Origin: Pyropia yezoensis
Lineage: Eukaryota; Rhodophyta; Bangiophyceae; Bangiales; Bangiaceae
Length of the DNA stretch: 64,000 bases
Direction of reading: 5' to 3'
Assembly (NCBI GenBank): GCA_009829735.1
Contig: CM020619.1
Location: forward strand, 17,055,816 to 17,119,815
Of this stretch, positions 5,232-46,724 are shown piece by piece; the stretch's first letter is position 1; each line of letters opens with the position of its first letter. The notes under the pieces are model-generated. The model was not told the DNA's origin and made no database searches. It was given only the letters and a program-made list of their open reading frames with translations. The position numbers and the translations under genes were made by a program.

Positions 5232-5262
<31 letters not shown>

Positions 5263-18432: not shown

Positions 18433-18900
18433 TGTGGCAAAAACCACTCACACGCGCGGCACCCAAGTTGGTGCGGTGCGCAAGGGCTGCCTCCGGTGTC
18501 GGGGGAACCGGAAGAAGTGCAAGTCGCACACACACTGTCCCTGTTGTGGGGCAATCCCCCCACTGACAAACAAGAAGATGGTGTGTGGGCCAACAGTTTC
18601 TTGGTCGGAACGGGGAAGCGAGGCCAAGCCCCGCTGTCCCTCCCCTTATCCCCCCAGGGTCCCCTCAGAATCTCGCCACTCAGAATCTCCCACCCCAGCA
18701 CCTGCCCACCGGGCCACACGAAAATTCAAGACGATAAATGCAGAAGACCCTCAAATCCACGTTGGATTTACAACTAAGCTAACTATCCCAGACTTAGAGA
18801 ATATGGACCCAAATGCAGGGGGAAGAACGGGTCAGGCTAGTGGCCTGCGCCCCTTGCATGGAACGTGTTGCCCCCCTACATGGGGGTCAATACTGCCACA
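18433..18900 (-). repeat. 3' LTR of gypsy-1
   Basis: Inverted ends TGTGGCA and TGCCACA. A purine tract (GGAGAGGGGAG on the minus strand, 18901-18911) directly precedes it in the element's own direction. Confidence 0.9.
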
Positions 18901-19235
18901 CTCCCCTCTCCTCAGTTCCGACCGACCCGGTCGGCCCTGCGAGGGGGCGTAGAATCGCACATCGCGGCGTTGGGGGCGCGACTTGCTGTCCCCCCGGTAC
19001 GTCACGTGGACGTGGAGGCGGTCACGTTGACCGCCCCTCTCCTCAAGCTTGCCCACTTGGCAGCTTGCTCTTATCGGTACTCACCTCACCACCACCAACA
19101 CATCCTCTTCACCTTACCCTGGGCCGCCCCACGCTGGGGAGGCCACCCATCTACGCGCGATCCGAGCCCCCCTCAACTCGAGGTGGGTGTCGTGCAACTG
19201 CAACCAGGTCGTCTCTCCCTAACTTGGGGTGAGCC

Positions 19236-19937
19236 ATGGTGACCCCGGGGGTGGAGACTGACTCCTTGGACGAACGTATGGAGGACACTTCCTACGATGC
19301 AGCGCCCGCTGGGACTTCCGGCGGGGGCTCCGCGGTCGCTCCGGGGGATGGGATACCCGCGTCACCCGGCTTTGGGTTGGCGGCGGGATCTTTCCCGGAG
19401 ACGGGCCGCGTTGTTCCACGGGAGGCCCTGGGGCGGTGGTTTTACCCCGCTTGGCCTCTGTATGAGGAGGGGTTGACGGTTCTCCGCTGTGGCCGACTTG
19501 GCACAGCGATGAGTCGCGTATGGGACCGCCTACGGGAGAAGTTCTCCCGTAGGGTCGGGTTTCCTCCCGACTTCAGGACGGACCAGTTTGCCTTCCTGGA
19601 TGAGGACGAGGTCGAAGACGTGCAGCGGGCCAAGGCCATGGTGGACCGCGGGGGTACTATCTCGCGCACTGGCGACGTGCAAACCTTCACTCGGGAAGCG
19701 GTGGCAACTCGCCCCCCGTACCTTCGCGACGTCGATCCGGACACTCATCACTTTGACGTGCGGATGGAGAAGGACTATCGGCGAGGTCCCTACTTGGTGA
19801 CCTCGGCTCAACTAGAGTTTCTGCAGCAGTCGCCTGCAAGCAAGGAGCAATGCTACCCCAAGAAGCCCGAGTGGTGGCCTCAAGTCGAGGTCCCCTACGG
19901 GTTTCCGGCGTTACTACCACGGTTGCTCGACCACTTC
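19236..19937 (+). pseudogene. Antisense ORF of gypsy-1, first segment
   Basis: It lies on the strand opposite to gag-pol, between pol and the 3' LTR. From an ATG at 19236 it encodes about 234 residues up to the insertion point of gypsy-2. The first 60 residues are Gly/Pro/Ser-rich. A more globular part follows, with the shared block CYPKKPEWWPQVEVPYGF at residues 206-223. The same block, with the same spacing between YP and EVP, occurs in the antisense ORF of gypsy-2, and a weaker version in gypsy-3. Function unknown. It is interrupted, so it is no longer a whole gene. Confidence 0.75.
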
Positions 19938-20631
19938 TGTAGGGACCCTATGGGCCCTCCACGTGGGGGGACCTCGTAGAGATCGCGTGGTACCCCTGCG
20001 CCCACCTTCCTAATGAGGAGGACGGGGCCGACTTGGCCCCCCGGGATTTTACTGGCTTCCGATTGGTCCCCTCCTATGGAGGCGGAACCGGGTCGCCATT
20101 GACTCTGGGGCCCATTTTGGGATTCCCAGTGTATGGGATTTTCCCCTGACCGGAATTGGCCTTTGGCCAATAATCCGGGATGGGATGCATTTGGGGTTTG
20201 GAGTGTGATTGTGTATTTTGCGTAATTGTGAGATTGGGGAGATCTTGAGTGTTGGCACTGATGTCCGGCGCGGCTCTTCTCCCCCGTATCCTGGAGATTC
20301 CTGCCCCGCTGGCAGGGATGATCCGTGGGGGAGGGGGCCCTGTCTGGACATGTTGGAGGGTTTTGATTGGCCCGCACGTGGCCCGGTGTGGAGGGTTGCT
20401 GGGTGCGGGTGAGAGAGGGTAACAGTGTGCGTGGGGGTGCGCGTTGCTTCCCCCCTCGAAAAAAAGACAGACTTGCGTGTGCTTGAACAATGTCGTCCTG
20501 GTCGCGGATCCCCGCGTGAACCAGCCAGGCGGTCGGCGATTCTGTATCTCTCCGGTCTCCCCGCGTTCTTGGCGGGTCGGTTCTCTGTGTGTTCTCGGTG
20601 CTAGGCGCCTAAGGTACGTAAAAACACTACA
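19938..20631 (+). repeat. 5' LTR of gypsy-2
   Basis: Begins TGTAGGGACC and ends CACTACA. The near-identical copy is at 28988-29680. Confidence 0.95.
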
Positions 20632-20650
20632 TTTGGTGGCTCAGCGGGGG
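20632..20650 (+). promoter_or_regulatory. Primer-binding site of gypsy-2
   Basis: TTTGGTGGCTCAGCGGGG directly follows the 5' LTR. TGG followed by a GC-rich stretch is the form expected for pairing with a tRNA 3' CCA end. The tRNA was not identified. Confidence 0.6.
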
Positions 20651-20747
20651 AGGGGACTAGGTTCCTTCTGGCCAAAGGGGTCTACCCCTTCTTCGTACTC
20701 TTTCTGTTGTTGTGCTCTGTCTTCCCTAAGGGAACGCGGTTGTTGTG

Positions 20748-22469
20748 ATGTTAGATAACAAGCGGAATCCTCCTCGGGGGGAGACGGGAGTCCTTGAGGG
20801 CGGCTCGTCCGTGACGAGGGAGAGCGCGACGGGAGCTGCTCTTCCGACTCACGCCCTCGGGGCTGGACTGGACGACCTGGCCACCCATAGGGTGACCACA
20901 CGTCTACCCTCGCTGGAAATCGGTTCGGAGGGCCCATTGGGCGAACCTTTCTTCCCACCGCGGACGGGACGCGAGGGGGGGAATTCAATCGGCCTCGGCG
21001 ACCTCCCTGGGGTCCATCCCGTGGCGGGGATAGGTTCTGAGGGAGCGCCCACCCCTCCTGTTCCCGCTGTGGGGGCATCGTCTCCTAAGGAGACCCCCCG
21101 AGCGTTTGTGGCTCCTGGATCGGATACTCCTACGGAGGAATGGAAGAAAGCGATGGTAGAAGCTGTTAGCGGCCTCCTGACCCCGCTCAACCAACGGTTG
21201 AGTTTTGTGGAACGAAGTGTGACGAAGCGAGAGCGCCAGCGTGGCCGGCGTCCCAGCTCGTCATCTGAGTCGACTTCGGATTATTCCGGAGGGGAGGCTT
21301 CGCCTCCCGAGCGCCGTCGGCGCTCGCGACCTGTCGTCCGAGCGGTTTCCGCTCAGGCAGGACCGGGGAGAGCCCCCCTACGGGAGATTCCCCCCAAGAT
21401 TATTCCGGCTGATGACCGCTATGCGAGTCTTCTGGATTGTGAGACCTATGCTCTCAAGAACAAGGACAACCGAGTATCGAGAACCGAGGCCAAAGGCCTG
21501 GGTAAGAAGCGTAAGGACCTGTCCAGCATATGTGGTCGTGATTGTGAATGGGGGGGAGACCCTCCTCTGGGAGTCTTCGAATTCCTCAACCGCTTCGTGA
21601 AGGCGGCGAATGATAACGGCCTCTCAGAGGGGCGAGCTTTGCTCCTCCTCCCCGAATTTACTAAGGATCCCTTGAAGAGAGACCTTTATCGAATCCGCCC
21701 GTCCGTCGATCACGGCCGGCGTACTGGGGAAGTGACTTCCTATTTGGAACTTGTGAACTGGCTTCTGCGCACGTACGCACATGAGCATCTCCTGAATGAA
21801 CAGGAGGCCATTTTTAATGGCGCCTCCCAAGAGGAGGATGAGACAGAGACGGGGTTTCACCGCCGTCTCATGGAACTCCACGCTAAGTGTGGATACATAC
21901 AAACCCCGGGCCAGGTCCGAGCACGCTTTATGCAAGACACATGGTGGGAGATTCGGCATGAGGTGCGGAACTACGTAGCTGACCACCCTCATGTTCCTAT
22001 TGAGCTGGTGAAGCAATATGCCCAACGGGCAGGGGATTTTCGACGGCGGATTCAGGCCGCCGCCGCAGAGCTTAAGGTTAAGGAAGACGCAGAGCGCCAC
22101 GCCCGTCGTATGGCGCGTCGCGCTCTGGCAGCCGTTACGTCGTCCCACCTGGAGGTGGGGGAGGCGTCTGCTTCTTCCTACAGGGAATCACGACCCTCTG
22201 GGGGGTCACGGGGGACGGACGGGAAACGAGAGCCCTTCCCCTGCCATATCTGCAATAGTACTTCACACTGGATGGCAGATTGCCCTCACCTCCCTGAGGA
22301 GACTCGGAACCGGATGACCAAGGCACGCGCCGAGCTCAGAGCGGCTCGAGCCGCTGCTCTTGCGAGTGGGGCGGTTGCTGCTGTCGTACCCTCCCCGACG
22401 GGGAAGGAAGAGCGAGCGAGTTCCCTTAAGGGGAGCTCGTCTGAGTTATCGACTTCGGGAAACGCCTGA
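20748..22469 (+). CDS. gypsy-2 gag
   Basis: A gag polyprotein of about 573 residues forming the particle shell of the retrotransposon. The first 210 residues are low-complexity and Pro/Ser/Glu-rich. A capsid-like helical core is visible at about 220-420 (YALKNKDNRVSRTEAKGLGK, VFEFLNRFVKAANDNGLSEG, EVTSYLELVNWLLRTYA). The nucleocapsid-type knuckle CHICNSTSHWMADC (CX2CX4HX4C) follows near residue 500. The same capsid blocks occur in gypsy-1 and gypsy-3. Gag and pol are in different frames. Confidence 0.9.
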   Translation: MLDNKRNPPRGETGVLEGGSSVTRESATGAALPTHALGAGLDDLATHRVTTRLPSLEIGSEGPLGEPFFPPRTGREGGNSIGLGDLPGVHPVAGIGSEGAPTPPVPAVGASSPKETPRAFVAPGSDTPTEEWKKAMVEAVSGLLTPLNQRLSFVERSVTKRERQRGRRPSSSSESTSDYSGGEASPPERRRRSRPVVRAVSAQAGPGRAPLREIPPKIIPADDRYASLLDCETYALKNKDNRVSRTEAKGLGKKRKDLSSICGRDCEWGGDPPLGVFEFLNRFVKAANDNGLSEGRALLLLPEFTKDPLKRDLYRIRPSVDHGRRTGEVTSYLELVNWLLRTYAHEHLLNEQEAIFNGASQEEDETETGFHRRLMELHAKCGYIQTPGQVRARFMQDTWWEIRHEVRNYVADHPHVPIELVKQYAQRAGDFRRRIQAAAAELKVKEDAERHARRMARRALAAVTSSHLEVGEASASSYRESRPSGGSRGTDGKREPFPCHICNSTSHWMADCPHLPEETRNRMTKARAELRAARAAALASGAVAAVVPSPTGKEERASSLKGSSSELSTSGNA

Positions 22470-22522
22470 AGGGCGGTTCCCCTACAGTTTCCCCCAATGC
22501 GTCCAATGATGAGGGGAGACCG

Positions 22523-25500
22523 ATGAGGGTATTGCGCCGCCCTCGGACGAATAAGCCTGCATTACTGGCACTCCCCAAGGGGGTGAAACGGGAAAATGTT
22601 ATTTGCGCGTTTATGCCATCATCCAGCTATCAGCTGGCTGTACACTTGTTTGCTACTGAAGGGTTAGAGCATGCTCTACACGATGTCCTGGATACCGGCA
22701 GCGGGCCCTCCCTGATTCGAAGCTCATTGCTCACTAAGGGATTGAGGCTCCAGCCCCTAGGGGAGCTGGAGAACATATTATACTTTGACCTGAATGGGGG
22801 GTGGCTCCCCATTCGAGGAACTGTGCGCTTAGGCGTAGAAGTGGGAGACCAAGTTTCCTACGTCTGCTTCGGAGTGATCGATAATCTGGCGGTACCCGCC
22901 ATATTAGGTAACTCCTTCGGAGATACCGAAGTGAAAACCATCTCCTGTGAGGACCAAACGGTCACCCTCTAGACAGGGATGGTCGTCCCCATCCTTCGGG
23001 ATATGGAGGACGTGGAATCCGGCCCCATTAGGTGGAGCTCTGTGTGCGCTTGTCCTAAGGCCAAGACCGCTAAGCTCAGGTTGTGCCACAAGCTGAAGCT
23101 GAAGCCTGGGGTTATCTCCCACGTGAAGGTGAGAGGGCAGTTCCAGGGCCACGGGATTATTTCCGGGCAGCCCCGGATTGCCTCCAGGTATGGGGTTCAC
23201 GTGGCCAACGGCCCTGCGGAGCTCACTCGGGACGCCCCGTACGCCGTGCAAATGATGAATCCTACGCCAAGGATTGTCCGCCTCCCCGTTGGGGCGGTGG
23301 TGGCGTCAATCTCCTCCTATCAAGGACCTATACTGAGTGTCTCTCAAGAAGAGATGCAGAAGCTGAGCGAAGGTCCCGCGGCGAAGCCGGAGGGCGCCCA
23401 TTCCGAGGTGGACCTAGGAGAGGTCCCTGAAGCCCTACGTGGCCAGCTCTTGGAGCTGGTGGAGAAATGCAAATCCCTATGGGATGGTACTCTTGGGCTC
23501 ATCAAGAATACCGCACATCGTATCCGCTTAAAACCCGGGGCAACCCCGGTAAGGCAACATCCCTACAAGGCAGGGCCCAAGCACTGCCAGCTGGAAGGGG
23601 AACAAGTGGAACAAATGCGAAAACTGGAAGTTATTGAACCCGCCAAAGGCGAGTGGGCTAGTCCCGTGGTGATCGTCCCGAAGCAGGACGGCACGCCCCG
23701 GTTTTGTACTGACTACTGGCGGCTCAACCTCGTCACGGTGAAGGACGTGTATCCCATCCCAAGGATGGATGAATGTTTGGACTCCCTAGGGGAGGCCAGG
23801 GTGTTTAGCACCCTAGATTGCAACGCCGGATATTGGCAAATCCCAATTGCCCCAGAGGATAGGCACCTGACGGCCTTCACGTGCCATAAGGGCACGTGGC
23901 AATGTACGCGGTTGCCCTTTGGGCTCTGCAATGCTCCAGCGACTTTTCAACGAGCCATGGATATTATCCTGGCCGGCGTGAAGTGGCAGACGTGCCTAGT
24001 ATATCTAGACGATGTTATCGTCTTCTCTCGCTCGGACGAGGAGCATCTGCACCACCTGGAGCACGTTATGAGCCTTCTCAAGGAGAACGGCGTATCGCTG
24101 AAAGCGTCCAAGTTTTACCTCTTCCAGAGGGGGGTCGAATATCTGGGACATGTCATCCGCCCAGGGCGGGTGGCCGTGAATAAGAAGAACACCAAGGCCC
24201 TGAAGGGGCTACATTGTCCGCGTACGCAGACGCAACTGAAGAGTTTTTTGGGCATGTGCGGGGTATACCGAAGGTTTGTCCCCAATTTCGCCCGTATCGC
24301 TCGGCCGCTGAATATGCTGACTAGTACGCATCTGGCCAAGGAACTACCTCCTCCTACGGAGGAGACTCAAGCGGCGTTCGAGGAGCTCCGCGACTGTCTT
24401 CTGAAGCCTCCCATTTTGGCCATCCCTCGGGAGAGAGCCCATTATATTGTGCAGGTGGATGCCAGCTATGAGCAACTGGGCTGTGCCCTGCTGCAGCAGC
24501 AAGAGGACGGGGAGTATCTCCCCGTTGGGTATTTTAGTCGGGGTTTATCCCCGGCGGAACGGAACTATTGTGCCACAGAAATTGAGGCCCTAGGGGTCGT
24601 ATGGTCTGTGACCTACCTGCGTTCCTTCTTGGAAGGGACCGAATTTCTTGTACGTTGTGACCACTCCGCCCTCACTTCGGTGATGACGAGTAGTAGTCCC
24701 AATCGACGCCTTACGGGCTGGAGACTCCGCTTGGCGGAATATTCGTACCAGATTAAGCACAAGCCGGGTAAGGACCACAAGGTGGCTGATGCCCTATCGC
24801 GCCTTCCTACGGATGGCTTGGATAAGACGCCTCTGAATGATCAAATCCCCGCTCTAGCGGTGACGAGGTCAGCAAAGGCCCTTACGGACCGGAGCCCTAA
24901 GGGCCTCGGCAAGATTACGCTCCGAGAGCTCATTGAGGCCCAGGCTTCGGATGAGTTTTGCAAGCAGCGTCGCTTGGAGGGGCCTATGGTCTCTCCGAAG
25001 GATGCCCGTTGGCAACGCAATGCCTTCTTCTTCGAAGATGACGATGGTGTACTGTGTCGCCATTCCCTCCTCAGGGGGAACAACCAATGGGTCATTCCAG
25101 AGTCGCTTCGAAAGCGTGTTCTGGAAATGTACCATGACGCGCCTACGGCGGGTCACCCGGGGTCTCGGAAGATGTATCGTACGATGCGGCAGTATTTTTA
25201 CTGGCCCGCCCTAGTGGCGGACGTATACGGGTATGTTTATAACTGCCCAGGATGCACTCAGAATCGCATAACGGAAAAGAGGCACACGTCTCCTATGAAG
25301 CTGTTCCCCGCGCGGGAGCCATTCCAAGCCGTGGCGATGGACTTGTTGGGCCTGCTCCCGAAGACGGAGAATGGTCACACCATGCTCCTGGTAATGTGTG
25401 ATCGCTTCACCGAATTGGTGAGGGCCGTCCAACTGTCGGACACCACTGCCCTTGGGGTAGCTTCGGCATTCATTGACTATTGGGTTGCTGCCTACGGCAT

Positions 25501-26476
25501 CCCGGATTCTACGCTCACGGACAACGGACCTCAGCTCGCTGCCGTGTACTTCCAAGGAGTCATGGGGCTCCTGGGGATCGCCACCAACTTCACGACCCCA
25601 TATGACCCCCAGACCAATGGTCAGGTGGAACGGTACAACAAGACGATTATGCGACAGCTACGGACGTACTTGTCCGCGCACCCACGGGAATGGGATCGCT
25701 ATGTGTCCCTACTGACGACTGCATATCATATGCAGGTACATTCGAGTACTGGGGTTGCCCCTCTGACCTTCGTAAGCCCTCGGCGATTGGAGGCCTCGAA
25801 TATTGAACGTTTACCTAAGGTACGCTCAGTGGACACGGAGGAACCCGACGCCGATTCGGCGGCGGTTCAATACGTGAAAGAGTTGCGCAACCTAATCCCA
25901 AGGATTAGGACGAACTTGGATAAGGCCCAACTGGCCTACAAGCGTGTCTATGACGCGGGTATTCGAAAAGACAATGAGGCCATGTCCCAAGGGGATTGGG
26001 TTTATGTGAAATCCTATACTAAGGGGCGGACCAAGATGTCGTCTAAGGCGAAGGGGCCATATATGGTGCTACGCACTGACGGTCAACGATTTCTCATTGA
26101 AGCCCCTACGGGAGAACAGACCCGGAGTAGTGACAATGTCACACGCGCTCCCCCGCCTAAGGCAGGGGATCCAGTGTGGAAGCGGGCGCGGGAAGCCCGT
26201 GACGCATTCAATGAGTGCCCTGAGGAAACCTCGGGGAAGGATGTGTTCGAGCAGATCGTCGGCCACCAATGGGTGGAAGACGACAACGGGAAACCCGACT
26301 TGGACTTCCGGGTCCGTTGGTTTGGCCACGGACCCGAAGGGGATACTTGGCACCTCAAGAAGGGGGTGCCACGAGCAGCCCTCCTGAAGTATGCCCGGAA
26401 GCACAAGCTCCCCATCAAGGGACGGGACCAAGTGTCCCGACTATTCCCCCAAGGGGGGATCGAAGAAGAAGGATAA
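22523..26476 (+). CDS. gypsy-2 pol: protease, RT, RNase H, integrase, chromodomain
   Basis: In order: a retropepsin motif VLDTGSGPSLIRS near the start; reverse transcriptase with PVVIVPKQDGTPRFCTDYW, PFGLCNAPATFQRAM and LVYLDDVIVF; RNase H with VQVDASYEQLGCALLQQ and ADALSR; an integrase zinc finger (HDAPTAGHPGSRKM, CPGCTQN); a DDE core (MDLLG, LTDNGPQLAAV, QTNGQVERYNKTI); and a C-terminal chromodomain (DFRVRWFGHGPEGDTWHL). Chromodomains in this lineage tether integration to modified histones. The RT-IN order and chromodomain make it a chromovirus. It carries about one break. Confidence 0.92.
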
Positions 26477-26555
26477 CAAACTATCTCCCTCAGGGAACTC
26501 GGTAAAAGAAACAGACTACTACGTGAGACGCCTCTACGAGGCGCCCAACAATGCA

Positions 26556-28346
26556 TTAGTAACCCCGGTGCCCATAGGGCTGGGACCCATCATGGTATCG
26601 AGGGCCATGTCCTCCACCTCCGTATGCGGCTTCGGCTGCACCCCGGAGGGACAAACTCGGGATCTGCAACATGGTATCCATGTTAGCTCTCCCGAGTTCT
26701 CGGTCCAGGCGCTCGGAGAGCGCCGACTGAGATAGTAGTGGCAACGCCACCGGCGGAATATCCCGCCAGTCCCGACGTGTGGTGACAGTTGCCGCCATGT
26801 CGTTAGCCAGGCTCGTGTAGGCCCGACAAAGCCCCAAAACGAGGGAGTCTTCGACGGCATCCCCAAGGGATGGGGGGGGTCGATCAAAGACCCGCCCCAA
26901 TGCCGCTACGGTAGTACCCGGGATAGGTCGAGGCATCGCCAAAGGCGGACCGCCCCAACGGAAGGAGGCCACTGGCTCAGGGACCGTTGCCCGCCGTCCG
27001 CTGGGCGACCGAACCTCCTCACCGGGGGGATAGTTCCCCCGAGGGGGCGCTCCAAAGGAACGCCCAGAAGATGACGCGACTTGAGCACGACTCCCCCTCG
27101 GGGAGTTCGGCCGCATAGACGGGCCATACCGCTCCTGGCCAAACCCTGGGAGACAAGGCCCCTCCTCCTCCATGCGGGGTTCCGGGTTGGGCACCGGCGT
27201 TGCGGCCATTAACCCCGGAGGGTAGGGTAGCTCCTCGTGACCCAACCCCTCTTCCAAGAAGAGAACACCGTCCGCGGACAAAGACTTCGCGCATCGTACC
27301 AATGCACGAGCTCGAAGAGGAAGACCCAGGAAGGAAGGCAAGGTCTTTTGATGGACCTTCTCGATGAGATGGAGAAGTGCACGCAGGTACGCCGCGGAGT
27401 CAGGGTTACCCTGACACAACACGTCAATGGGGCTCTCTAGGAGAGCCCGCAGAAGGGGGATCGGAACAAGCCAAGCATGTCCGTAGTACAACCCCGAAGA
27501 CAGCAAGACGTCGGCTACCTCCACCAGCCAGCAGGCGTTCAGAGCTGCTCTGGCCGCCGAGTCCGGGCCGTCGGCCATCAGCCGACTCCCCCGCACGGCA
27601 ACTAAGTTGCCAATACGCGCGGCCATGCCGCGTGGAACCTCGTAGTCGCTCCACCAAGAGGGGATGACCGGGTACAACTTGAGGCGCTCTCCGTGGGAGA
27701 AGCACTCTACCTCCCGCTGCTCTGCGCAGGCGAAGATGCCATGGCGCCGACGGTGCCGATGCTCCGTTAACGCTTGGCGTAGGAAGTAACCGCGAGGGCG
27801 TCGCCCAATGACCGGTAACGGACCCGGGTAATACGCCAGGTCGAAGACCGGCATTGTCCCCGGTGGTAACGGGGGGCGCGAGCACGCATCGTCCAGCTGC
27901 TGAGCGAGCTTCCAATCCTCCGCAAAGCGGAGCACGGGGTAGTCCGTCGGCGTCCCAATCGGGACCTCGTGGAGGTCCGGGTAGAGATGGCGGAATGTTG
28001 TCCACACCCCCGTCATGCGGCGTGGATCCACCTGAACCCACCGGTCGGTGACCGCGCCGGGATGCGGGTGAGGGTAGGGCCGCTCCTTGTGAAAGGGGAT
28101 GACTTCCCCGAGGGGGCTCGGCCCCCGTGAGTCCGCCGACGGCGGAACAGGTACCTCGGCCGGCGAAGCCGGACCGGCATCACCCCGGCCACTCCCGGCG
28201 TCGTCCATCGGGACGTCGTCGGGAGAGGCGGGTGGCAACCCCGTGTCCGAAGGACCACGGGGGGAGGAAGGAGCCGGAGGGGAAGCGGACCCGCTACCCT
28301 CACTCATGGGAGCGGGGTTGCCCAACTGCCCCGACGGGGTAGCCAT
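26556..28346 (-). CDS. gypsy-2 antisense ORF (accessory gene of unknown function)
   Basis: An uninterrupted 596-residue ORF on the strand opposite to gag-pol lies wholly between the end of pol (26476) and the 3' LTR (28988). It is therefore not a shadow of a sense ORF. The N-terminal 100 residues are disordered (Pro/Ser/Asp). The globular part has a YP...WWSDYEVPRGM block at 225-241, a hydrophobic helical centre, then EEGLGHEELPYPPGL. The C-terminal third is Pro/Arg-rich with a SLVLG block. No zinc finger, protease, envelope-like signal peptide or membrane anchor is visible. Homologous blocks occur in the antisense ORFs of gypsy-1 and gypsy-3. It could be an accessory protein or regulator. 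Antisense extra ORFs have been described in some plant Ty3/Gypsy lineages. Confidence 0.8.
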   Translation of the reverse strand: MATPSGQLGNPAPMSEGSGSASPPAPSSPRGPSDTGLPPASPDDVPMDDAGSGRGDAGPASPAEVPVPPSADSRGPSPLGEVIPFHKERPYPHPHPGAVTDRWVQVDPRRMTGVWTTFRHLYPDLHEVPIGTPTDYPVLRFAEDWKLAQQLDDACSRPPLPPGTMPVFDLAYYPGPLPVIGRRPRGYFLRQALTEHRHRRRHGIFACAEQREVECFSHGERLKLYPVIPSWWSDYEVPRGMAARIGNLVAVRGSRLMADGPDSAARAALNACWLVEVADVLLSSGLYYGHAWLVPIPLLRALLESPIDVLCQGNPDSAAYLRALLHLIEKVHQKTLPSFLGLPLRARALVRCAKSLSADGVLFLEEGLGHEELPYPPGLMAATPVPNPEPRMEEEGPCLPGFGQERYGPSMRPNSPRGSRAQVASSSGRSFGAPPRGNYPPGEEVRSPSGRRATVPEPVASFRWGGPPLAMPRPIPGTTVAALGRVFDRPPPSLGDAVEDSLVLGLCRAYTSLANDMAATVTTRRDWRDIPPVALPLLSQSALSERLDRELGRANMDTMLQIPSLSLRGAAEAAYGGGGHGPRYHDGSQPYGHRGY

Positions 28347-28987: not shown

Positions 28988-29680
28988 TGTAGGGACCCTA
29001 TGGGCCCTCCACGTGGGGGGACCTCGTAGAGATCGCGTGGTACCCCTGCGTCCACCTTCCTAATGAGGAGGACGGGGCCGACTTGGCCCCCCGGGATTTT
29101 ACTGGCTTCCGATTGGTCCCCTCCTATGGAGGCGGGACCGGGTCGCCATTGACTCTGGGGCCCATTTTGGGATTCCCAGTGTATGGGATTTTCCCCTGAC
29201 CGGAATTGGCCTTTGGCCAATAATCCGGGATGGGATGCATTTGGGGTTTGGAGTGTGATTGTGTATTTTGCGTAATTGTGAGATTGGGGAGATCTTGAGT
29301 GTTGGCACTGATGTCCGGCGCGGCTCTTCTCCCCCGTATCCTGGAGATTCCTGCCCCGCTGGCAGGGATGATCCGTGGGGGAGGGGCCCTGTCTGGACAT
29401 GTTGGAGGGTTTTGATTGGCCCGCACGTGGCCCGGTGTGGAGGGTTGCTGGGTGCGGGTGAGAGAGGGTAACAGTGTGCGTGGGGGTGCGCGTTGCTTCC
29501 CCCCTGGAAAAAAAGACAGACTTGCGTGTGCTTGAACAATGTCGTCCTGGTCGCGGATCCCCGCGTGAACCAGCCAGGCGGTCGGCGGTTCTGTATCTCT
29601 CCGGTCTCCCCGCGTTCTTGGCGGGTCGGTTCTCTGTGTGTTCTGGGTGCTAGGCGCCTAAGGTACGTAAAACCACTACA
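28988..29680 (+). repeat. 3' LTR of gypsy-2
   Basis: A 693-bp copy of the 5' LTR, preceded by a purine-rich tract (GGAGGTGTGGGAAG) at 28974-28987. Confidence 0.95.
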
Positions 29681-31039: not shown

Positions 31040-31711
31040 TCACCTTGAGGGAGGGCAGATAGGGTCGATATCATTCTGGGCGCAGTATGCCCGAACCTTC
31101 TCAGCAGGAAGATCCTCAACGTATTCCCACGTATCATCCTTGGCCTCATAGCCGAACCAACGCACCCTCGACATGAGGCGGTTAGTGTCCTCATCCCACC
31201 CGTGGTCGATGAACTTATCGAACACGTACTCCTGCGGGCCCTGTTTGGCCGCAGGTATCGAAGGCAGGCGCCACGCTTTCAGCGCACGCGCCCGAGCCGG
31301 GTCACCTGCAGGAGGTGGTGCACCTTTTACCACGTCCTGTCCGTTTACTGTGCGGACCCCATCGTCACTTTCGATGGTAAACCGTCTCCCATCGGTACGA
31401 AGGACCTGGTATGGCCCCTTCGTCTTGAACACCAACTTACCCCCAGTTGGGGTGTGTGAGTGAGCCAGCACCCAGTCACCCTGCTCGGGGACGTGCTTAG
31501 CGTTGCGCACCTTCTTGTCGAAAGTACGCTTGTAGCGCTTTTGCGCTTTGTCCATCTCAGCCCTGACTTTAGGAATGAGTTTTTCGAGCCTAGCAGCGAA
31601 CTCCGCCTTACTATCAGTGGTAGTAGGTGTACTGCCATTGGCCTCCCTAGTTGGGAGCGGCCGCCGTACGGCAATAGACCGCACGCGACGGGGGGTCACG
31701 AAAGCGAGGGG
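31040..31711 (-). pseudogene. gypsy-1 pol, distal segment with chromodomain
   Basis: This is the end of gypsy-1 integrase (LAFVTPRRVRSI, DKAQKRYKRTFDKKVRN, GDWVLAHSHTP) and its chromodomain (MSRVRWFGYEAKDDTWEYVE). It is separated from the rest of pol by gypsy-3, whose LTR starts at 31712. Confidence 0.9.
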
Positions 31712-38212: not shown

Positions 38213-38340
38213 ACAGGGTGTCCAGGCGGCTACCGGTTGAGCAGGTAACCGCCGTCCTTTCTCCCGGCACGCAAGGGGAAAACAGGTAGAAGTACCCTGC
38301 CGTCGGAGATTCGGGAAGACGCTTGGGGAGAGCGCCTGCC

Positions 38341-40224
38341 CTACTCGTTTCCCGGGTCCGAGGAGTCCTTAGAGGTTTCGGTCTCCAGGTCAAAGTTCGT
38401 AGGAGCTTCTCTTGCCAGAGCCTCCGTGATTCTCTGTAAGGTTGCCACTCGGATTGCATGTACCTGTGCCTTGTCCATCTTGGAGGGTGCCCGCCGGTCA
38501 GCCCAGTTGACCGCCTTTGCAAACACCAGTCCTTGACGCTTGAGTTTCTCCTGGAGGTCCTTGGGAATGGTCGGGCACTGGTAGGACATGTGATCCTCCT
38601 TCTGGCACAGCCAACAAGACCGGAACCGCTGGTTCTTGACTTGCCTGGGGGCGACCAGGGATGGTTGCTCCTTAGAAACGAAGCCGCCCCACCTGTCCCC
38701 TGGCCCCATGGGTGAGGCCTCGCCAACTGCGAGTACGGGTACAGGGCTATCACCTCCCTTATACTTGTCGGGTCCGGGTCGAACTCGCGACAACGGCTTG
38801 GGAGTTGATACCATGGGAGCTTGGAGGGCCCTGGCTTGCCGGTACTTGCCCTGGGTGTAGGCCATCAACTGCTGGAAGGTATGTTCTTGATGTTCCTGGT
38901 TGTAGTTCTCCGCATCCACTTGAAGATATTCAGGAAGCCCTTCCGAGAAGATCATCTTGAGCCTGTCCTCAGGGTAAACGTTGCCACAAGCATCGCTCAT
39001 CTCCCGGACACGACGGGCGAACGCCTCTGGAGTCTCTTGTCTTTCCATGGTTGCCCGGTTCAGCCTGCCGACTGCTTTACGCAGAGAGTCCGCGTCAGCG
39101 TAGTTGGACAGGAGCCAGTTGACCGCCTCCGGATAACTCGCGACGGTACGTCCGACAATGTGTCCGGCAGAGTCTGGTAGAACCTGTGCAAACCGCTGTT
39201 CCGCTTCTCCGGTCATGAAGTTAACCAGGAGGTAGAGAGCCTTGCCCTCGGACACATCGTTGTCATTGCATGCCTTGATAAACCGGCGCAGGAAGGCAAA
39301 GATAAGCGCCGGTCTCTTCCCGGAAAACTTAGGATGTCCCCCGAAGCTCGGCTGCATTCGCCGGTTCAGGGACGCCATCTTCTTGGCCATCTTCCGGGTG
39401 TAACCTTGGTCTTGGTTCTCCAGCCGGTAGTTACCCCAATACGTGACCTTGTTCAGGGTGGCATCTCCCACTTGGTGGGCAGGGAAGTCAAACTCGACTA
39501 GCCTGCGCCGGGTGGGACCGGGAGATGCATCCCAATCATATCCCTCCTCAGAGCTGGAGGAACTGGTCTCGCTGGTGCTAGAGCGACGGCGATGACGCCG
39601 ACGCCTTCGGCTGCTCCGGTTACCGGTCTTGGAGCTCCCCGCCCCATAGGATGCAAGGGGAGGAAAAGCTTGGCCGGTCCCAGGAGTCGAGGTCTCAGGG
39701 AGACCCGTAGAACCAGTCACAACGGTGCCTCTGGCATCGCTAGTGCCCACAGGAAGAGGTGTATACACCCAGCTGCCATGTGTGGGTCCAGGAGTAAACA
39801 CACCAGGGGCTATCCCTGGAGGTTGAGGAGTAGAACCGACAGGAGGGAGACGTCTGCTGCGAGCGGACTCAAACGCCGTTGACCCCGGGGTGGCTCCCAC
39901 AGGAGGAACAGCCGGAGGAACGGGAGCAGGTGGTGCTTGGCCGCCTGTGGACTCCAGTCCGCTACCGGATGTCACGCCCAGGTCTGCTTCACCCGTAGGG
40001 AGAACGCCGGGTTGGGCACCGTCCCCCGCGGTGACCAGGGATGCGTCAAGGGACGCGGGGTCTACCCCTTCGGGCACCGTCGTGCCAGGAAGGGTAGCCA
40101 TGTTGGTCTCTTGACAGCCACAGTCCAGTTGCCTGCGTGTCCAAAGATCGCCAGACCACAAGAGAGGGGTTGGAGAGCCAGGAATGGGATTCCCGTGAAC
40201 GGGTGCAAATAATTCCCAAACCAC
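38341..40224 (-). CDS. gypsy-3 gag
   Basis: A gag polyprotein of 627 codons. It has a Pro/Gly/Thr-rich leader, a Ser-rich acidic segment with RRRRRHRRRSSTSETSSSSS, a capsid-like helical core (FAFLRRFIKACNDNDVSEGK, TVASYPEAVNWLLSNYADAD) and a zinc knuckle CWLCQKEDHMSYQC. Its core aligns block by block with gypsy-1 and gypsy-2 gag. Confidence 0.9.
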   Translation of the reverse strand: MVWELFAPVHGNPIPGSPTPLLWSGDLWTRRQLDCGCQETNMATLPGTTVPEGVDPASLDASLVTAGDGAQPGVLPTGEADLGVTSGSGLESTGGQAPPAPVPPAVPPVGATPGSTAFESARSRRLPPVGSTPQPPGIAPGVFTPGPTHGSWVYTPLPVGTSDARGTVVTGSTGLPETSTPGTGQAFPPLASYGAGSSKTGNRSSRRRRRHRRRSSTSETSSSSSEEGYDWDASPGPTRRRLVEFDFPAHQVGDATLNKVTYWGNYRLENQDQGYTRKMAKKMASLNRRMQPSFGGHPKFSGKRPALIFAFLRRFIKACNDNDVSEGKALYLLVNFMTGEAEQRFAQVLPDSAGHIVGRTVASYPEAVNWLLSNYADADSLRKAVGRLNRATMERQETPEAFARRVREMSDACGNVYPEDRLKMIFSEGLPEYLQVDAENYNQEHQEHTFQQLMAYTQGKYRQARALQAPMVSTPKPLSRVRPGPDKYKGGDSPVPVLAVGEASPMGPGDRWGGFVSKEQPSLVAPRQVKNQRFRSCWLCQKEDHMSYQCPTIPKDLQEKLKRQGLVFAKAVNWADRRAPSKMDKAQVHAIRVATLQRITEALAREAPTNFDLETETSKDSSDPGNE

Positions 40225-40295
40225 AGAAAAAGACAGAACAGGAACAACCCAACCGCTGCTCCCAAATGTCTCTTCTCAAACACTCCAATCATCCC

Positions 40296-40313: not shown

Positions 40314-40884
40314 TGTGGTATAAAACTCGATCCTCTCAGACACGTGTCAATATCCCTCGGGGGAAAGGGACAGGTAACACAGAAAGGGGAACTACGAGAA
40401 TGGTATGCCTGTTGTCTCACGTGCCTGCTCGCAGAGCAAACAGATACGCACGGTAGTGCACACGGGGAAGAGGAAAGCAAACGCGCAGTTGTCTTTTTCC
40501 TGAGGGCGCGGGCCAAGGGCGCCTCGCTGTCCCTCTTAACGTGCATCTGGGGGAGCCTCGGCACGTTGGCCAGGTAGCCCCCCCATAACCCCGAGTGGCC
40601 CCGACCCGAGTCTAACCTCGTCAGGTCGGGGGCCACTATCACTACTAATTCTATTCCCACTCACTAATCTCACACTCAAATTCTCTCAAATCAAGTCCCT
40701 CACAAGTATGCAAAAACCCATCAGCAATCCCTCTCTCACGTGTGGATAGCGTAGTCCACCGCATCCCAGTGCCGGGCACGGGCCACGGCCGCCAACCGTC
40801 ACCACACGGCGGGCGTGTTCTGGCACCTGGTGCCCTCTGGTTGTAGTCCCGGGTCGGCGCCAAGTCGGGGCCAGGGATGCTACA
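40314..40884 (-). repeat. 5' LTR of gypsy-3
   Basis: A 571-bp copy of 31712-32282, with one visible difference. Confidence 0.95.
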
Positions 40885-43800
40885 AGGGGTACTTCCCTGG
40901 TAGATGAGTGAACCTGCGAATTGTAGGCGGTCGTAAGAATTGAAAAGTATTGGTCCCACGTTTTCACGTGCTCACTCACGTAGTGGCGCAGCTGTCGAAC
41001 AATAGTTTTGTTGAAGCTCTCCACCTGCCCATTAGTTTGTGGGTGGTAGGGGGTGGCATAGTTTGCCTGAACCCCCAACATATCCAGCACTCCCTGAAAC
41101 AGTACGGACGCAAACTGCGGTCCGTTGTCCGACAGTGTACTGTCCGGGATGCCATAGGCGGCAACCCAGTGATCTAGGAAGGCTGACACGACCGACATGG
41201 CCGTGATCTCTGCCAGAGGGATCGCTCGCGTAAGTTTCGTGAAGCGATCGCAGATGACCAGGAGGTACTGGTTGCCATCCTCGATCACTGCCCAAGGATG
41301 TCCATTTCCAACGCGGCAAAGGGCTCCTTGGCCGGGAACAGTAACATAGCCGTGGTGGGCCGCCGTTCCATCAGACGGTTCTGCGCACAACTTGTGCAGG
41401 CAGGCACCGAACTGTAGATGTCGACCACCATGGACGGCCAGTAGTAGCTGGTCCTCAGGGTCTGGTACAGTTTACTAGACCCCAGGTGTCCACCTGTGGG
41501 AGCGTTATGCTCCCTCTCACGGATACTGTCCTTGAGGGATGCGGGGACGACAAGTTGTTCAGTCCCCTGAATTACCCCCCTCCTCAAGAGGAGGCCATCG
41601 TCCCCGACAAAGAACCGCGTCTCCGCCACCGTATCTAGCGTATCCCTCTGCGACTTGCAGAAGGAGTCTTCGGCCCGGGCCTTCACCACCTCGTCCAGGG
41701 ACAGGGGCAAGTACTTCTTGTTCCCTGGCGCCTCAGGGTCCAACGCCTGACCCGAGCGCGTGACTACCCCCACGATGGGGATGTCATCATCGACTGAGTT
41801 AGTTTCCAGCCCCTCGGTAGGTACCCGAGAAAGGCCGTCGGCTAGGGCATGTTGCCTGCCGGGACGGTACTCAATATCAAATTTGAAGGGTGCCAGTCGC
41901 ACCCTCCACCTGTTGAGGCGTGTGTTCGTGCAATCCGTCTTGAATATGAACTGCAACGCGCGGTGGTCACAGCGGATGAGGAACTTCTCACCCTTTAGGT
42001 ACTGACGAAGTGACGTCACCGCCCACACCACTGCGAGTCCTTCCAACTCGGTGACTCCATAGTTCTTCTCAGCCGAGTTCAGCCCCTTGCTGAAGTATCC
42101 TACCGGCAAGTACTCCTTGTCCGGCTTCTGCTGAAGCAACACACAACCAAGTTGGTCGTAGCTAGCATCCACGTCTAAGATGTAGTGGCCTCCCAACCTG
42201 GGAATAGCCAAGATAGGGGGCTTGAGTAGTAGATCCCGCAGAGTCTCAAGGGATTCCTCCTCCACCCGACTTGGGGGAGGCAGGTTCTTCGGTAGCGTTG
42301 AGCTAACTAGCTCATTCAGCGGCTTCGCCACCTTGGCGAAGCCATTGGTGAAACGTCGGTACAAGTTACACATCCCGAGGAAGCTCCTCATCTGGGTCTG
42401 GGTCCGGAGGTACTGAGCCTTACGGATGGCTCTCAAGTTCTTCTCATTGACACTGAGGCGCCCCGTACGGACAACACGTCCCAAGTATTCCACCTCCTGA
42501 GTGAAGAGGTGGCACTTGCTCGCCTTCAGTGACACACCGGCGTCAGCAAGTAGCTGGAACACCTGACCAAGATTGCCAATGTGCTCCTCCGGACTTCGGG
42601 AGAACACAATGATATCGTCTAAGTACACAAGACAGATCTGCCACCGTACTCCGGCCGGAATCATGTCCATGGCGCGCTGGAAAGTTCCCGGCGCGTTGCA
42701 CAGTCCAAACGGTAGTCGTTTGCACTGGTAGGTACCACAGTGACAGGTAAAGGTAGTTTTATGCCTGTCTTCCAGGGCAATTGGAATTTTCCAATACCCC
42801 GCGTTACAGTCTAGGGTAGAGAACACGTTTGCTTCCCCCAGAGCGTCCACACAGTCGTCCATCCTAGGTAGGAGATAACTGTCCTTCACCGTGCTCTCGT
42901 TGAGCTTACGGTAGTCGATACAAAACCGTGGGGTCCCATCAACTTTGGGGACAATGACCACCGGACTCGCCCACTCGGCGTTGCTGGGCTCAATCACATC
43001 GAGGGCCTCCATGCGAGCGACTTGCTCCTTGACGAAGGCCCTTGAACGGGGTCCTCCCCTATACGGTTGTTGACGTATAGGGGGTGCATCGGGTTTCAAC
43101 TCGATCCGGTGTTCAGTAGCTCTCATGAGTTCCAATTGACCATCCCACAACTTCTGATATTGGTCCATGAGACGTTCAACTCGAACCCTCAACTTGGGTG
43201 GAACGTTCTCCATGTTCACATGGGGCCCAGGAGAGGCGGCCGGCTTGGCTTGGTGCTTCTCCTTTCCAGACTTCGGGTCGCTACTCGCGCCCGCGTTGAG
43301 GGTGACCGTTACTACTGGTCCCTCATTATGGTCGATATAGCCGAACTTGCGTCCCGACTTGAAGTACTTGGGCGAAGAGCTCAGGTTCATCACCTGAACC
43401 CTCCACGGGACTCCGGCTTTGGAGTCCATCGTGCCAAGGGCAACATGCCCTTGGTGCTTACGAGCAAGGCGGGGGCTAGGGTGCACCAACCCGTTCCCCG
43501 TATAATCAGTTACAACGTTAACGTGCGCCACCGAGTTGGGGGGCAACGTGACCTTACGGGCTAAACGCAGGGTAGCAGTAAACCCTTCTCTCACGGAGCA
43601 AACAGGCTTCGACTGTGAAACTGTCCCAGGAGCCACAGACTTTCCCTTACCAAGGATGGGGATGGTCTCCCCATTCATCAACTTGACCCAATACTCCGGG
43701 CCACAAATCAGAGGCACTTGTGTTACAACATAAGGGGTACCCCGAAGCAGGGGTACCGATACATTCTCGACTACTCCATAGGTCACGTCGACCTCATGGG

Positions 43801-44194
43801 TTCCCAACCTAGTTGGTAGGGTCACGGCCCCAACAATGGGAAGCACCCCACCATTGATGTCAATCACATGGTCGGCCTTAGACCTCCAGCGTTGGAGCTT
43901 CACCTTCTTGGGTAACAGCGACTTGCGTATCAAAGAGGCTCCTGAACCGGTATCAAGTACGATACGGGCACAACAGGCACGGCCGGGGGCTAGTTGCACC
44001 CGGCCAGCCACCTGGAAGTTCTCACCCGTCAGCACCGCGATGACCCGACGTGGGTTTACGTTCTTGGGGAGCCCAACCCGAGGTGGGCGGACTCCCTTAG
44101 GTCGGCGCAGTATCCGGCAGGGTTGGTTCGTCCTCTTGACCCACTTGGCCGAGGCTGCCGTTGTGAGCTTACGACGGCCAGCTCCAACGGTCAT
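40885..44194 (-). pseudogene. gypsy-1 pol, main segment
   Basis: It carries a protease motif (VLDTGSGASLIRKSLLP), reverse transcriptase (LPFGLCNAPGTFQRAMD, LVYLDDIIVFS), RNase H (LDVDASYDQLGCVLLQQ, ADGLSRV), and the integrase zinc finger and core (LSDNGPQFASV, QTNGQVESFNKTI). The left end is the gypsy-3 insertion site. It is broken in about two further places. Confidence 0.88.
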
Positions 44195-46023
44195 TCGCTT
44201 CCCGCCGACTTGGCGTCGGAATCCGAGGGCGAAGGGGAAGACGACGAGTCCGAGGACGACGTGTCCGCCCCCTCCGCCGAGGGTGTGGCGACCGCCACTA
44301 CCGGTCGAGGTCCACCCTCGCGGCGTGAACGTACTTCGTTCGTAGCCGTCTTCTTACTTGCATTCTTAACGAGTTGTTGAATGCGTTTACTCAACATAGG
44401 GCAATGATATGCCCAGTGTCCATCGGAGTTGCAGTTCCAACACCAATGGTCAGTTCCCGGAGTAGTCTCCCCGACTTGGGAAGTAGATGAGGTACCCTGG
44501 GAAGTTCCCACGGCAGCTACTACCTCATCCTTGCGGATACGGCGTACCTCTCGTGGCTCTCTGGCCTGGCGCGCCTCCTCTCGCTCCTTGGCCAACTCGG
44601 CCTGACGCTCCTGGCGTTGTTCCTCCCTCAACTTGCGGTAGGCCTCACCTCTGCGGTAGGCAAACCTGGCCAACTCGGCTAGGGTCGCACGGGCAGTATT
44701 ATGCTCCCGGGTCTCCATACGGACTGACCAATGGAGTCCCTCCACAAACCAACTCTTCACCACAGCTTGTGGATGAAGAAAGCCTCAAAGATTATTGAGC
44801 TTACGGACCCGCTCCGCAAAGGACAACTCGTCCTCAGTCTCGTCTTGATGAGCTTGCGTAAACTCCTCGACTTGAGAAGCCAACGCGGCTTCATCCAGCA
44901 TAGCTCTCAACAACCAGTTTACGAGCTTCAAGTAGGACGTCACCTCACCAGCGCCTCCACTTGAGGAACTGGGCATGACGGACATGAGTTCTGTCCGTAG
45001 GTCGCCCTTGGTAAACTCCTGTAGCATGTAGAAAGCCATGCTTTCACTTATGGCATTTTCGTAACAGGCTTTTGTGAAACGACGTAGAAGCTCAAAGACA
45101 CGGAGGGGAGGAGTTCCATCCCACTCCGCTTTGTGCCCAAAAGAGTGAAGTGCACTCTTCTTGGGACGACCCATAGCTCGGGCCTGAAGAGGACCGTACG
45201 CCACCGACTTGTTGTGGAGCGCGTAGGTCTCACAGTCAAAGATCCTCTGATAGACCGGGTTGGCGACCTGGATCTTGGGCGGCACCTCACGTTGAGGGAA
45301 AAGCCGCTGAGGAAATGGGGTGAGTTGACCCGCAGTGCCTGTCGTCTGCCGCGGCGAGCTTGGTGTAGCCACCGGCGTTTCCGAGGGGAATTCCCCCGTA
45401 AAGGGCGTGCGCCCCACCGAGAATGGTGTGGCTCCCTCGTTGGGAGTCACAGGGGTCGCCCCCGGTTCGGGGCGACCCGAGACAGGCGTAGGGAGGGATT
45501 CCCCCTGCGTCTGCGGGCTCGAAAGCCCCAATCCGGTCTGGACATTGAGACCTTCTGGCAAGCTCGCCACAATCTGATTCAGAATGGTATTTGTCATCGT
45601 GACCACCAGGTCCGGCAAAGTCTGCCGCAACACATTGGTCGCCTCCCGACGGACAGTTTCCGCGAGGAGTGGATTATGGACTCCAGTTGAGTCTCGGTCC
45701 GCCTCCGGGAGTCCACCTGAGGGGTAACCACGATCCTCAGAGGTCTCAACCGGGGGCATGGGCGCGAGCCCATCGCCGACCAACGGAGGTCCCCCGTCCT
45801 CCGAAAGCCTATTCGGCGACGGCTTCAAGCCAAAGTTGGCTCCAACCCGAGTGGATCCCGCGGGGACAGTCCTCTCACATTGGGACGTTCCCGTTGAGTG
45901 TACCACACGGTGGCCGGACTTCGGCCCACAAACATCAGAAGTGTCACCCGAATGAACTCCCGACTGAGTCGAGGTGGCCTGTCGCCCGCCCGTACTCCCA
46001 GTCCTGTTGGCTTGAGGGACCAC
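44191..46023 (-). pseudogene. gypsy-1 gag
   Basis: It has a Pro/Gly/Thr-rich leader, a capsid-like core (VFELLRRFTKACYENAISES, EVTSYLKLVNWLLRA) and a knuckle CWNCNSDGHWAYHC. The region is split by about one break. Its core is homologous to gag of gypsy-2 and gypsy-3. Confidence 0.85.
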
Positions 46024-46237
46024 CGTCCCTCTGCGACCCCAGGTACACCTACCTGTGTCTCACCAGTATTCAAAGGCACTGAAGTACGTGCGTCACCCGT
46101 GTACTCCCCAGACGACGGGGGGTCCGAACCAGCCATGTCGGCCGACGATCCGTAAGACACGATCCAAATCAACCGTTCCTCTGAAACAGAGGGCCCCCTA
46201 CACCCGGGTGCACCCGGAGGTAAAGTTTACCTCGATC

Positions 46238-46255
46238 CACTGCTGCTCCACCAAA
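46238..46255 (-). promoter_or_regulatory. Primer-binding site of gypsy-1
   Basis: On the minus strand TTTGGTGGAGCAGCAG follows the 5' LTR at once. It is identical in its core to the gypsy-3 site. Confidence 0.65.
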
Positions 46256-46724
46256 TGTGGCAAACACCACTCGCACACGCGACACCCAAGTTGGGGCGGT
46301 GCGCAAGGGCTGCCTCCCGTGTCGGGGGAACCGGAAGAAGTGCAAGTCGCACACACACTGTCCCTGTTGTGGGGCAATCCCCCCACTGACAAACAAGAAG
46401 ATGGTGTGTGGGCCAACAGTTTCTTGGTCGGAACGGGGAAGCGAGGCCAAGCCCCGCTGTCCCTCCCCTTATCCCCCCAGGGTCCCCTCAGAATCTCGCC
46501 ACTCAGAATCTCCCACCCCAGCACCTGCCCACCGGGCCACACGAAAATTCAAGACGATAAATGCAGAAAACCCTCAAATCCACGTTGGATTTACAACTAA
46601 GCTAACTATCCCAGACTTAGAGAATATGGACCCAAATGCAGGGGGAAGAACGGGTCAGGCTAGTGGCCTGCCGCCCCTTGCATGGAACGTGTTGCCCTCC
46701 TACATGGGGGTCAATACTGCCACA
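46256..46724 (-). repeat. 5' LTR of gypsy-1
   Basis: A 469-bp copy of 18433-18900, differing at about ten positions. Its outer end runs straight into the minisatellite. Confidence 0.9.

What the first reader, a model, noticed from the sequence alone, without database searches (positions are those of the whole stretch)
18433..46724. A conserved antisense gene in three nested chromoviruses
Each of gypsy-1, gypsy-2 and gypsy-3 has, between the end of pol and the 3' LTR, a further ORF on the opposite strand (19236-19937 and 29681-30928; 28346-26556; 32275-34107). None overlaps a sense ORF, so they are not shadows. The gypsy-2 and gypsy-3 copies are uninterrupted for about 600 codons. The proteins are strongly diverged, yet a YP pair is followed by E-[VI]-P-x-G after exactly 11 residues in all three (WW before it in gypsy-1 and gypsy-2). 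EGLG....PY.PG is shared by gypsy-1 and gypsy-2, and SLVLG by gypsy-2 and gypsy-3. Extra antisense ORFs are known in some plant Ty3/Gypsy lineages, but I recognise no match to this protein. It could be a new accessory gene, for example a regulator, silencing suppressor or particle component.
Basis: partly seen in the sequence, partly recalled or inferred. Interest (0 to 1): 0.88.

Follow-up and report, generated by a model that had tools for sequence, protein, structure and literature searches.

The report
Backward-facing accessory gene in nori retrotransposons
Jumping elements in the nori seaweed genome carry an extra gene that faces the opposite way from their other genes, and its sequence shows that natural selection has preserved it, although what its protein does is still unknown.

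Summary
The antisense ORFs are real and form one gene family. A profile of the gypsy-2 protein and seven database relatives finds the gypsy-1 pieces (E 3e-6, 3e-10) and gypsy-3 (E 6e-6); the best of 60 shuffles of each was 0.025. The host is the red alga Pyropia yezoensis. Three queries list 77, 146 and 150 matches in its genome (capped). In 35 of 40 distinct loci read, the ORF sits tail-to-tail with pol. Selection is purifying: dN/dS 0.17-0.18 between gypsy-2 and three diverged relatives, comparable to pol, with silent changes in excess in the antisense frame. Antisense-protein and integrase trees agree for five clades. Against strict need: 25 of 59 nearest pol ends lack a recognisable partner ORF, and the one read directly has lost the core. 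No Pfam, PDB-sequence or confident fold match was found. The position is known from Grande, Retand and Boty; the protein family looks new. Best reading: a trans-acting accessory, probably regulatory, protein made from an antisense promoter at the 3' LTR. That function is inferred, not shown.

The parts
18433..18905 (-). gypsy-1 3' LTR (element on - strand)
   Evidence: self-comparison, 97.9% to 46256-46728; no TSD found
46256..46728 (-). gypsy-1 5' LTR
44785..46059 (-). gypsy-1 gag-like ORF (424 codons)
   Evidence: by position; no Pfam match
41285..44353 (-). gypsy-1 pol: RT, RNase H, start of integrase
   Evidence: Pfam RVT_1 2.1e-32, H2C2 2.1e-13
40686..41471 (-). gypsy-1 pol: further integrase ORF, in another frame, next to the gypsy-3 insertion
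   Evidence: used in the integrase tree
31040..31744 (-). gypsy-1 pol end, parted from the rest by the gypsy-3 insertion
19236..19937 (+). gypsy-1 antisense ORF, first piece (234 codons)
   Evidence: hhalign E 3.1e-6 to the gypsy-2 family profile, controls
29686..30459 (+). gypsy-1 antisense ORF, second piece, same frame, beyond the gypsy-2 insertion
   Evidence: hhalign E 2.8e-10 with the open stretch 29671-30456; frame and TSD
19938..20631 (+). gypsy-2 5' LTR
   Evidence: 99.0% to 28988-29680, TSD ACTTC
28988..29680 (+). gypsy-2 3' LTR
20730..22469 (+). gypsy-2 gag-like ORF with a weak zinc-knuckle match
   Evidence: E 0.04, below cut-off
22973..26476 (+). gypsy-2 pol (RT, RNase H, integrase, chromodomain-like end)
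   Evidence: Pfam RVT_1 3.6e-32, rve 7.7e-9, Chromo 0.044
26556..28346 (-). gypsy-2 antisense accessory ORF, 596 aa, convergent with pol
31712..32283 (-). gypsy-3 3' LTR
   Evidence: 99.65% to the other LTR, TSD AGGGG
40314..40884 (-). gypsy-3 5' LTR
38341..40275 (-). gypsy-3 gag-like ORF with a weak zinc-knuckle match
   Evidence: E 0.019, below cut-off
34253..38368 (-). gypsy-3 pol (weak protease match, RT, RNase H, integrase, chromodomain-like end)
   Evidence: Pfam RVT_1 7.3e-36, rve 1.9e-11, Chromo 7.9e-4, RVP 0.0013
32275..34107 (+). gypsy-3 antisense accessory ORF (first ATG 32275, inside the LTR end; open from 32245), convergent with pol
27177..28079 (-). gypsy-2 ORF residues 90-390: span holding the conserved core; strongest constraint at residues 241-300

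Best explanation
These Ty3/gypsy elements of Pyropia yezoensis carry a true accessory gene on the strand opposite to gag-pol, tail-to-tail with pol and reading inward from the 3' LTR. SHOWN HERE: the ORFs of three diverged lineages are homologous, the reading frame is under purifying selection, the gene sits convergent to pol in most of the loci read, and its tree agrees with the integrase tree, so it was probably in their common ancestor. The protein is soluble-looking, with proline-rich flanks and one constrained core, predicted with moderate confidence to be mostly helical. INFERRED: it is transcribed from an antisense promoter in the 3' LTR or in the stretch between LTR and ATG (about 0.64 kb in gypsy-2), is made apart from the sense transcript, and acts in trans as a regulatory accessory protein on the element's own expression or replication. 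Deletion derivatives may then use the protein of intact relatives.
For: Homology with shuffle, reversal and unrelated-ORF controls. Frame test: gypsy-2 against L012, 254 silent and 192 replacement changes and 0 stops in the antisense frame, against a shuffle mean of 125, 310 and 8.6; the other five frames carry stops. dN/dS 0.17-0.18 and third-position excess, pol in comparable pairs 0.12-0.30. gypsy-3 family: silent variants 31 against 18.9 expected, 0 of 1000 simulations reach it. Convergent pol in 35 of 40 distinct loci, the three window elements included (L023). Same five-clade topology for antisense protein and integrase. No 19-residue hydropathy window above 1.6 in 4 of 4 proteins (highest 1.59, gypsy-3). 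In print (PMC7264820, parts 1 and 2 of 3 read): Grande gene23 has its own upstream promoter and a nuclear product; HTLV has an antisense promoter in the 3' LTR.
Against: No transcript or protein evidence was available. 25 of 59 nearest pol ends lack a recognisable partner, some with pol frames of 1342-1343 codons, so the gene is not kept in each copy. Proteins are near neutral, pI 6.3-7.3 in four element-borne examples, which does not suggest a simple nucleic-acid binder. Very close gypsy-2 copies give dN/dS 0.37-0.68, one group C pair 1.06, and several very close gypsy-3-like pairs exceed 1 on few changes. In one search the absence of stops alone is not significant (185 of 1000 simulations). 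The fold prediction is weak and gave no functional lead.
Confidence: 0.55

Rival explanations
1. The antisense gene encodes a counter-defence protein, for example a suppressor of host silencing, and evolves fast in an arms race with the host.
For: The antisense protein diverges faster than integrase: gypsy-1-like to gypsy-3 path about 3.8 against 1.0 substitutions per site. Convergent transcripts could form double-stranded RNA, a trigger a suppressor would counter (inference).
Against: Overall selection is purifying, no site-level test for positive selection was done, and fast divergence also fits relaxed constraint outside a core.
Confidence: 0.17
2. The protein is a second structural or particle component that works beside Gag.
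For: Long soluble-looking protein with a mostly helical predicted core; loss in some copies with open pol is what a trans-supplied structural protein would allow.
Against: No profile similarity to the three gag-like ORFs of the window; synthesis from the opposite strand is unusual for a stoichiometric particle protein (inference).
Confidence: 0.17
3. The antisense gene is an env-like or membrane protein.
For: Same place in the element as env (between pol and 3' LTR). One gypsy-3 window comes close to the hydropathy limit (1.59).
Against: Opposite orientation; no 19-residue window above 1.6 in 4 of 4 proteins; no Pfam match among 17 relatives reaches E 0.1.
Confidence: 0.03
4. Only the antisense RNA matters and the open frame is incidental, or the ORF is a chance shadow of a GC-rich sequence.
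For: GC-rich DNA gives long chance frames: gag-pol-strand open stretches up to 206 codons lie opposite the gypsy-3 ORF.
Against: Silent changes are concentrated in the antisense frame and no stop is gained between the three diverged pairs tested; protein-level homology across lineages.
Confidence: 0.02
5. The ORF is a captured host gene carried as a passenger.
For: Group D copies (four read; three more listed with similar scores) carry a related ORF, 342 aa in L028, without a gypsy pol nearby.
Against: Congruent trees and spread across five element clades do not look like a recent capture; group D is itself a repeat whose copies show little constraint (dN/dS 0.61-0.87).
Confidence: 0.05

Closest known systems
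Antisense additional ORFs (aORF-3R) of plant and fungal LTR retrotransposons: Grande gene23, RIRE2, Retand, PvRetro13, Boty (PMC7264820, parts 1 and 2 of 3 read)
   Same: Antisense ORF between pol and 3' LTR; kept in many copies; function unknown.
   Different: Different host group (red alga) and, as far as Pfam can tell, a different protein; here shown as one family across five element clades, and not kept in all copies.
TRP28 / Transposase_28 (PF04195) protein of Retand elements (PMC11963269, abstract and passages seen)
   Same: Same place and orientation; shared by most members of its lineage; function unknown, regulatory role suggested.
   Different: PF04195 was not found: none of 17 relatives matched and the own-genome search gave 0 matches. 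Retand is described as a non-chromovirus lineage found in Eudicotyledons and Liliopsida only.
HTLV-1 HBZ and other retroviral antisense genes (HBZ recalled; the HTLV antisense promoter is mentioned in PMC7264820)
   Same: Gene read from the 3' LTR side on the minus strand.
   Different: No sequence relation tested; HBZ is a vertebrate retroviral gene (recalled).
ORF3 genes of bdelloid rotifer LTR retrotransposons (PMC5408684, passages seen)
   Same: Accessory ORFs kept across several element families.
   Different: Those in the passages are enzyme, env-like or transmembrane types; no such domain is found here.

Membership tests
aORF-3R class (antisense additional ORF between pol and 3' LTR) | Antisense ORF between end of pol and 3' LTR | tested here: met
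   Window anatomy; 35 of 40 distinct loci convergent with pol
aORF-3R class (antisense additional ORF between pol and 3' LTR) | Present in most copies of the family | tested here: inconclusive
   34 of 59 nearest pol ends have it; lists are lower bounds since only the best candidates are scored
aORF-3R class (antisense additional ORF between pol and 3' LTR) | Own antisense transcript or promoter, as shown for Grande | not testable with these tools
   No RNA data held
aORF-3R class (antisense additional ORF between pol and 3' LTR) | Nuclear product, as shown for Grande gene23 | not testable with these tools
   Needs localisation
Retand TRP28 protein | PF04195 domain | tested here: not met
   0 of 17 relatives match; 0 matches in the genome (its control set rang only in E. 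coli, below the cut-off, so its sensitivity is unproven)
Ty3/gypsy chromovirus (the carrying element) | RT-RNase H-integrase order of Ty3/gypsy | tested here: met
Ty3/gypsy chromovirus (the carrying element) | Chromodomain after integrase | tested here: inconclusive
   gypsy-3 19.7 bits and gypsy-2 14.2 bits, cut-off 25.1
env-like protein | Transmembrane segments | tested here: not met
   no 19-residue window above 1.6 in 4 of 4 proteins, highest 1.59
Gag / capsid protein | Profile similarity to the elements' own gag | tested here: inconclusive
   no similarity to 3 gag-like ORFs, but a shared fold could be missed; the fold model is weak

The most novel reading that the evidence does not exclude
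A previously undescribed protein family serves as the antisense accessory gene of the Ty3/gypsy elements of nori and probably of other Bangiales; it evolves several times faster than integrase while staying under purifying selection, acts in trans against or upon host control of the elements, and has also left the elements as stand-alone repeat-borne copies (group D).
Probability: 0.25. Interest if true: 0.72.

Novelty: new variant of a known kind. Interest (0 to 1): 0.56.

Why it matters
The review read here knows antisense accessory genes of LTR retrotransposons from flowering plants and one fungal element, and their function is an open question. A family with many recent copies in one genome, in several diverged lineages and with natural copies that have lost the gene, makes the question testable by comparing carriers and non-carriers. 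In the same species 48% of the genome is reported as repeats, with LTR elements predominant (PMC7423979, passages), so a gene that helps them could matter for genome size.

Tried and rejected

Rows dropped before counts: alignment columns within 3 codons of a gap or in windows under 30% identity; columns with over 40% gaps, and B_L017 from the antisense tree (too short). The other 53 rows, below 49% identity and of other pol groups, were not tested.
Full report
WHERE IT IS. The window lies in a 107,475,971-base genome of 11 contigs. The three contigs met here, 43.59, 34.33 and 29.39 Mb, equal the three scaffolds of Pyropia yezoensis, 43.6, 34.3 and 29.4 Mbp, in PMC7423979 (passages seen). A light-harvesting protein of the genome matches best the chain 7y5e_72 (a red-algal complex, as I recall). 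The host is therefore nori.

ANATOMY. Three LTR elements are nested: gypsy-2 (+ strand) sits inside the antisense ORF of gypsy-1 (- strand), and gypsy-3 (- strand) sits inside the pol of gypsy-1. gypsy-2 has LTRs of 99.0% identity and TSD ACTTC; gypsy-3 has 99.65% and AGGGG; gypsy-1 has 97.9% and no TSD found. Pol domains were identified for all three. In each, one long ORF lies between pol and the 3' LTR on the other strand. Pol and ORF are convergent; between their stop codons lie 79 bp in gypsy-2 and 145 bp in gypsy-3. In gypsy-3 the first ATG lies inside the end of the LTR.

ONE FAMILY. BLASTP between the gypsy-2 and gypsy-3 proteins is marginal (19% identity, E 0.001). A profile of the gypsy-2 protein with seven database relatives (A1) aligns with gypsy-3 at E 6e-6, with the first gypsy-1 piece at 3e-6 and with the second at 3e-10, the two pieces falling side by side on the profile. 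These E-values are for one comparison each; hhalign probabilities are 85, 88 and 97%. Controls: 60 shuffles of each gave a best E of 0.025-0.085; reversed sequences and eight other ORFs of the window gave E 0.08 or worse; the stretch 30401-30925 gave 0.5. The shared part is one core. In a 17-sequence alignment P178, R199, E236, P238 and G240 of the gypsy-2 protein are invariant.

COPIES. The gypsy-2 protein has 77 matches in the genome down to 31% identity, 34 of them without an internal stop (counted by eye). A piece of the gypsy-1 ORF has 146 listed matches, 140 without a stop inside the match; a large block has identical scores, many of them with the same 724-codon open frame, a sign of recent amplification. 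A 240-residue part of the gypsy-3 ORF has 150 listed matches, 146 without a stop, at 97-99% identity apart from the window copy itself. The lists are capped, so they are lower bounds. Of 44 loci read, which were chosen by their antisense match, 39 have the end of a pol convergent with the ORF; four pairs of loci are the same place, so 35 of 40 distinct ones, the three window elements included. For L023 the script picked a neighbouring element, but one search shows the right pol. The exceptions are L013 and the four group D loci.

SELECTION. gypsy-2 against three diverged relatives: dN/dS 0.17-0.18, with for example 107, 70 and 254 differences at codon positions 1, 2 and 3. gypsy-1-like pairs, including the second window piece: 0.16-0.47. 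Group C: 0.35-0.60, and one pair, L018/L022, at 1.06; the L022 frame changes near its end, which may explain it. Group D: 0.61-0.87, no third-position excess (all). gypsy-3 against its seven relatives: 0.21-0.33; the pooled set has 31 silent, 31 replacement and 0 stop variants against 18.9, 42.5 and 1.7 expected, with 0 of 1000 simulations reaching the silent count, while 185 of 1000 have no stop either; some very close pairs in that call exceed 1 on few changes. Very close gypsy-2 copies give 0.37-0.68, as expected if drift follows insertion. Pol in comparable pairs: 0.118 (gypsy-2/L012), 0.295 (gypsy-2/L014), 0.13-0.15 (gypsy-1 end against two relatives). The frame test puts the silent excess in the antisense frame in 3 of 3 pairs tested; one sense frame also has a high silent fraction because its third positions coincide, but it has 19-25 stops. 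Along the protein, residues 1-60 look unconstrained (pN/pS 0.8-1.1) and residues 241-300 are the most constrained (0.07-0.10).

AGE. Trees of the antisense core and of integrase agree for the five clades present in both: A (gypsy-2) and B on one side, C, gypsy-1-like and gypsy-3 on the other, with gypsy-1-like and gypsy-3 together. Support for these two splits is 87 and 84 in the antisense tree, 97 and 99 in the integrase tree. One of 15 unrooted trees would match by chance. Other antisense nodes are weak (42, 60). The gypsy-1-like to gypsy-3 distance is about 3.8 in the antisense tree and 1.0 in the integrase tree.

NOT UNIVERSAL. Starting from the pol side, 34 of 59 pol ends of at least 49% identity to gypsy-2 have a convergent ORF match within 3 kb; 25 do not, among them elements with pol frames of 1342-1343 codons. 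In the one read directly (L047), LTR, upstream region and the first 79 residues remain and the core is gone. So the gene is dispensable in cis at least for persistence, or it is supplied by relatives.

WHAT IT MIGHT BE. No Pfam family reaches E 0.2 in 17 relatives; nothing in PHROGs for 5 proteins; no PDB sequence below E 0.5. The core model is mostly helical and moderate (pTM 0.64) with no significant structural match, which neither shows nor excludes a known fold. No clear membrane segment, near-neutral charge in the element-borne examples. Database relatives that look foreign to this species are few: P0005-P0010 come from unnamed contigs and are 32-40% identical; P0004, P0011, P0012 and P0013 are 60-98% identical to the window's own proteins.

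HOW IT LIKELY WORKS. The location matches the class reviewed in PMC7264820 (parts 1 and 2 of 3 read), in which Grande gene23 is transcribed from its own upstream promoter and its product is nuclear. By that analogy, not by homology, I take the nori protein to be a regulatory accessory protein translated from an antisense transcript. That it is a selected protein-coding gene I hold at about 0.95; that its role is regulatory at about 0.55. Counter-defence and particle component are the main rivals.

NOVELTY. The architecture is known; the protein family and the red-algal setting were not seen in the listings searched. A new variant of a known kind.

Noticed in passing
L025-L028 (G000 C3:25777060, C3:23182231, C1:43417565, C1:35257807) and three more places with similar scores: Group D: a repeat of several kb with a relative of the antisense core (342 aa in L028) but no gypsy pol nearby; long aligned stretches between copies are 88-97% alike, little sign of constraint between them. 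L026 and L027 also share a stretch which in L026 holds a copia-like RT (recognised by eye).
   Followed up: partly
L047 (G000 C2:2941340-2943340): An element with a pol frame of 1342 codons in which the antisense gene is cut down to its first 79 residues while LTR and upstream region remain.
   Followed up: partly
window 31712-32420 against L042: The window's gypsy-3 matches its relative L042 at 98.9% only from 32421 on; its LTR and the start of its antisense ORF differ, so the copy may be chimeric, and its N terminus differs from the database relative P0011.
   Followed up: partly
L012 against window 28346-29680: LTR and adjoining upstream region are 88.8% identical to gypsy-2 while the antisense ORF is 75% identical: the ends and the coding part seem to have different histories.
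   Followed up: no
window 14456-17362, - strand: Remains of a Ty1/copia element (RVT_2, E 8e-9 in 15035-15817).
   Followed up: no
window 46725-47007: Tandem repeat of about 34 bases directly beside the gypsy-1 LTR; no target-site duplication was found for gypsy-1.
   Followed up: no
G000: A gypsy-1-like relative with many near-identical copies and a 724-codon antisense frame, longer than gypsy-1's: a recent burst.
   Followed up: no
window 4001-6000: G+C reaches 83% in this 2-kb stretch.
   Followed up: no
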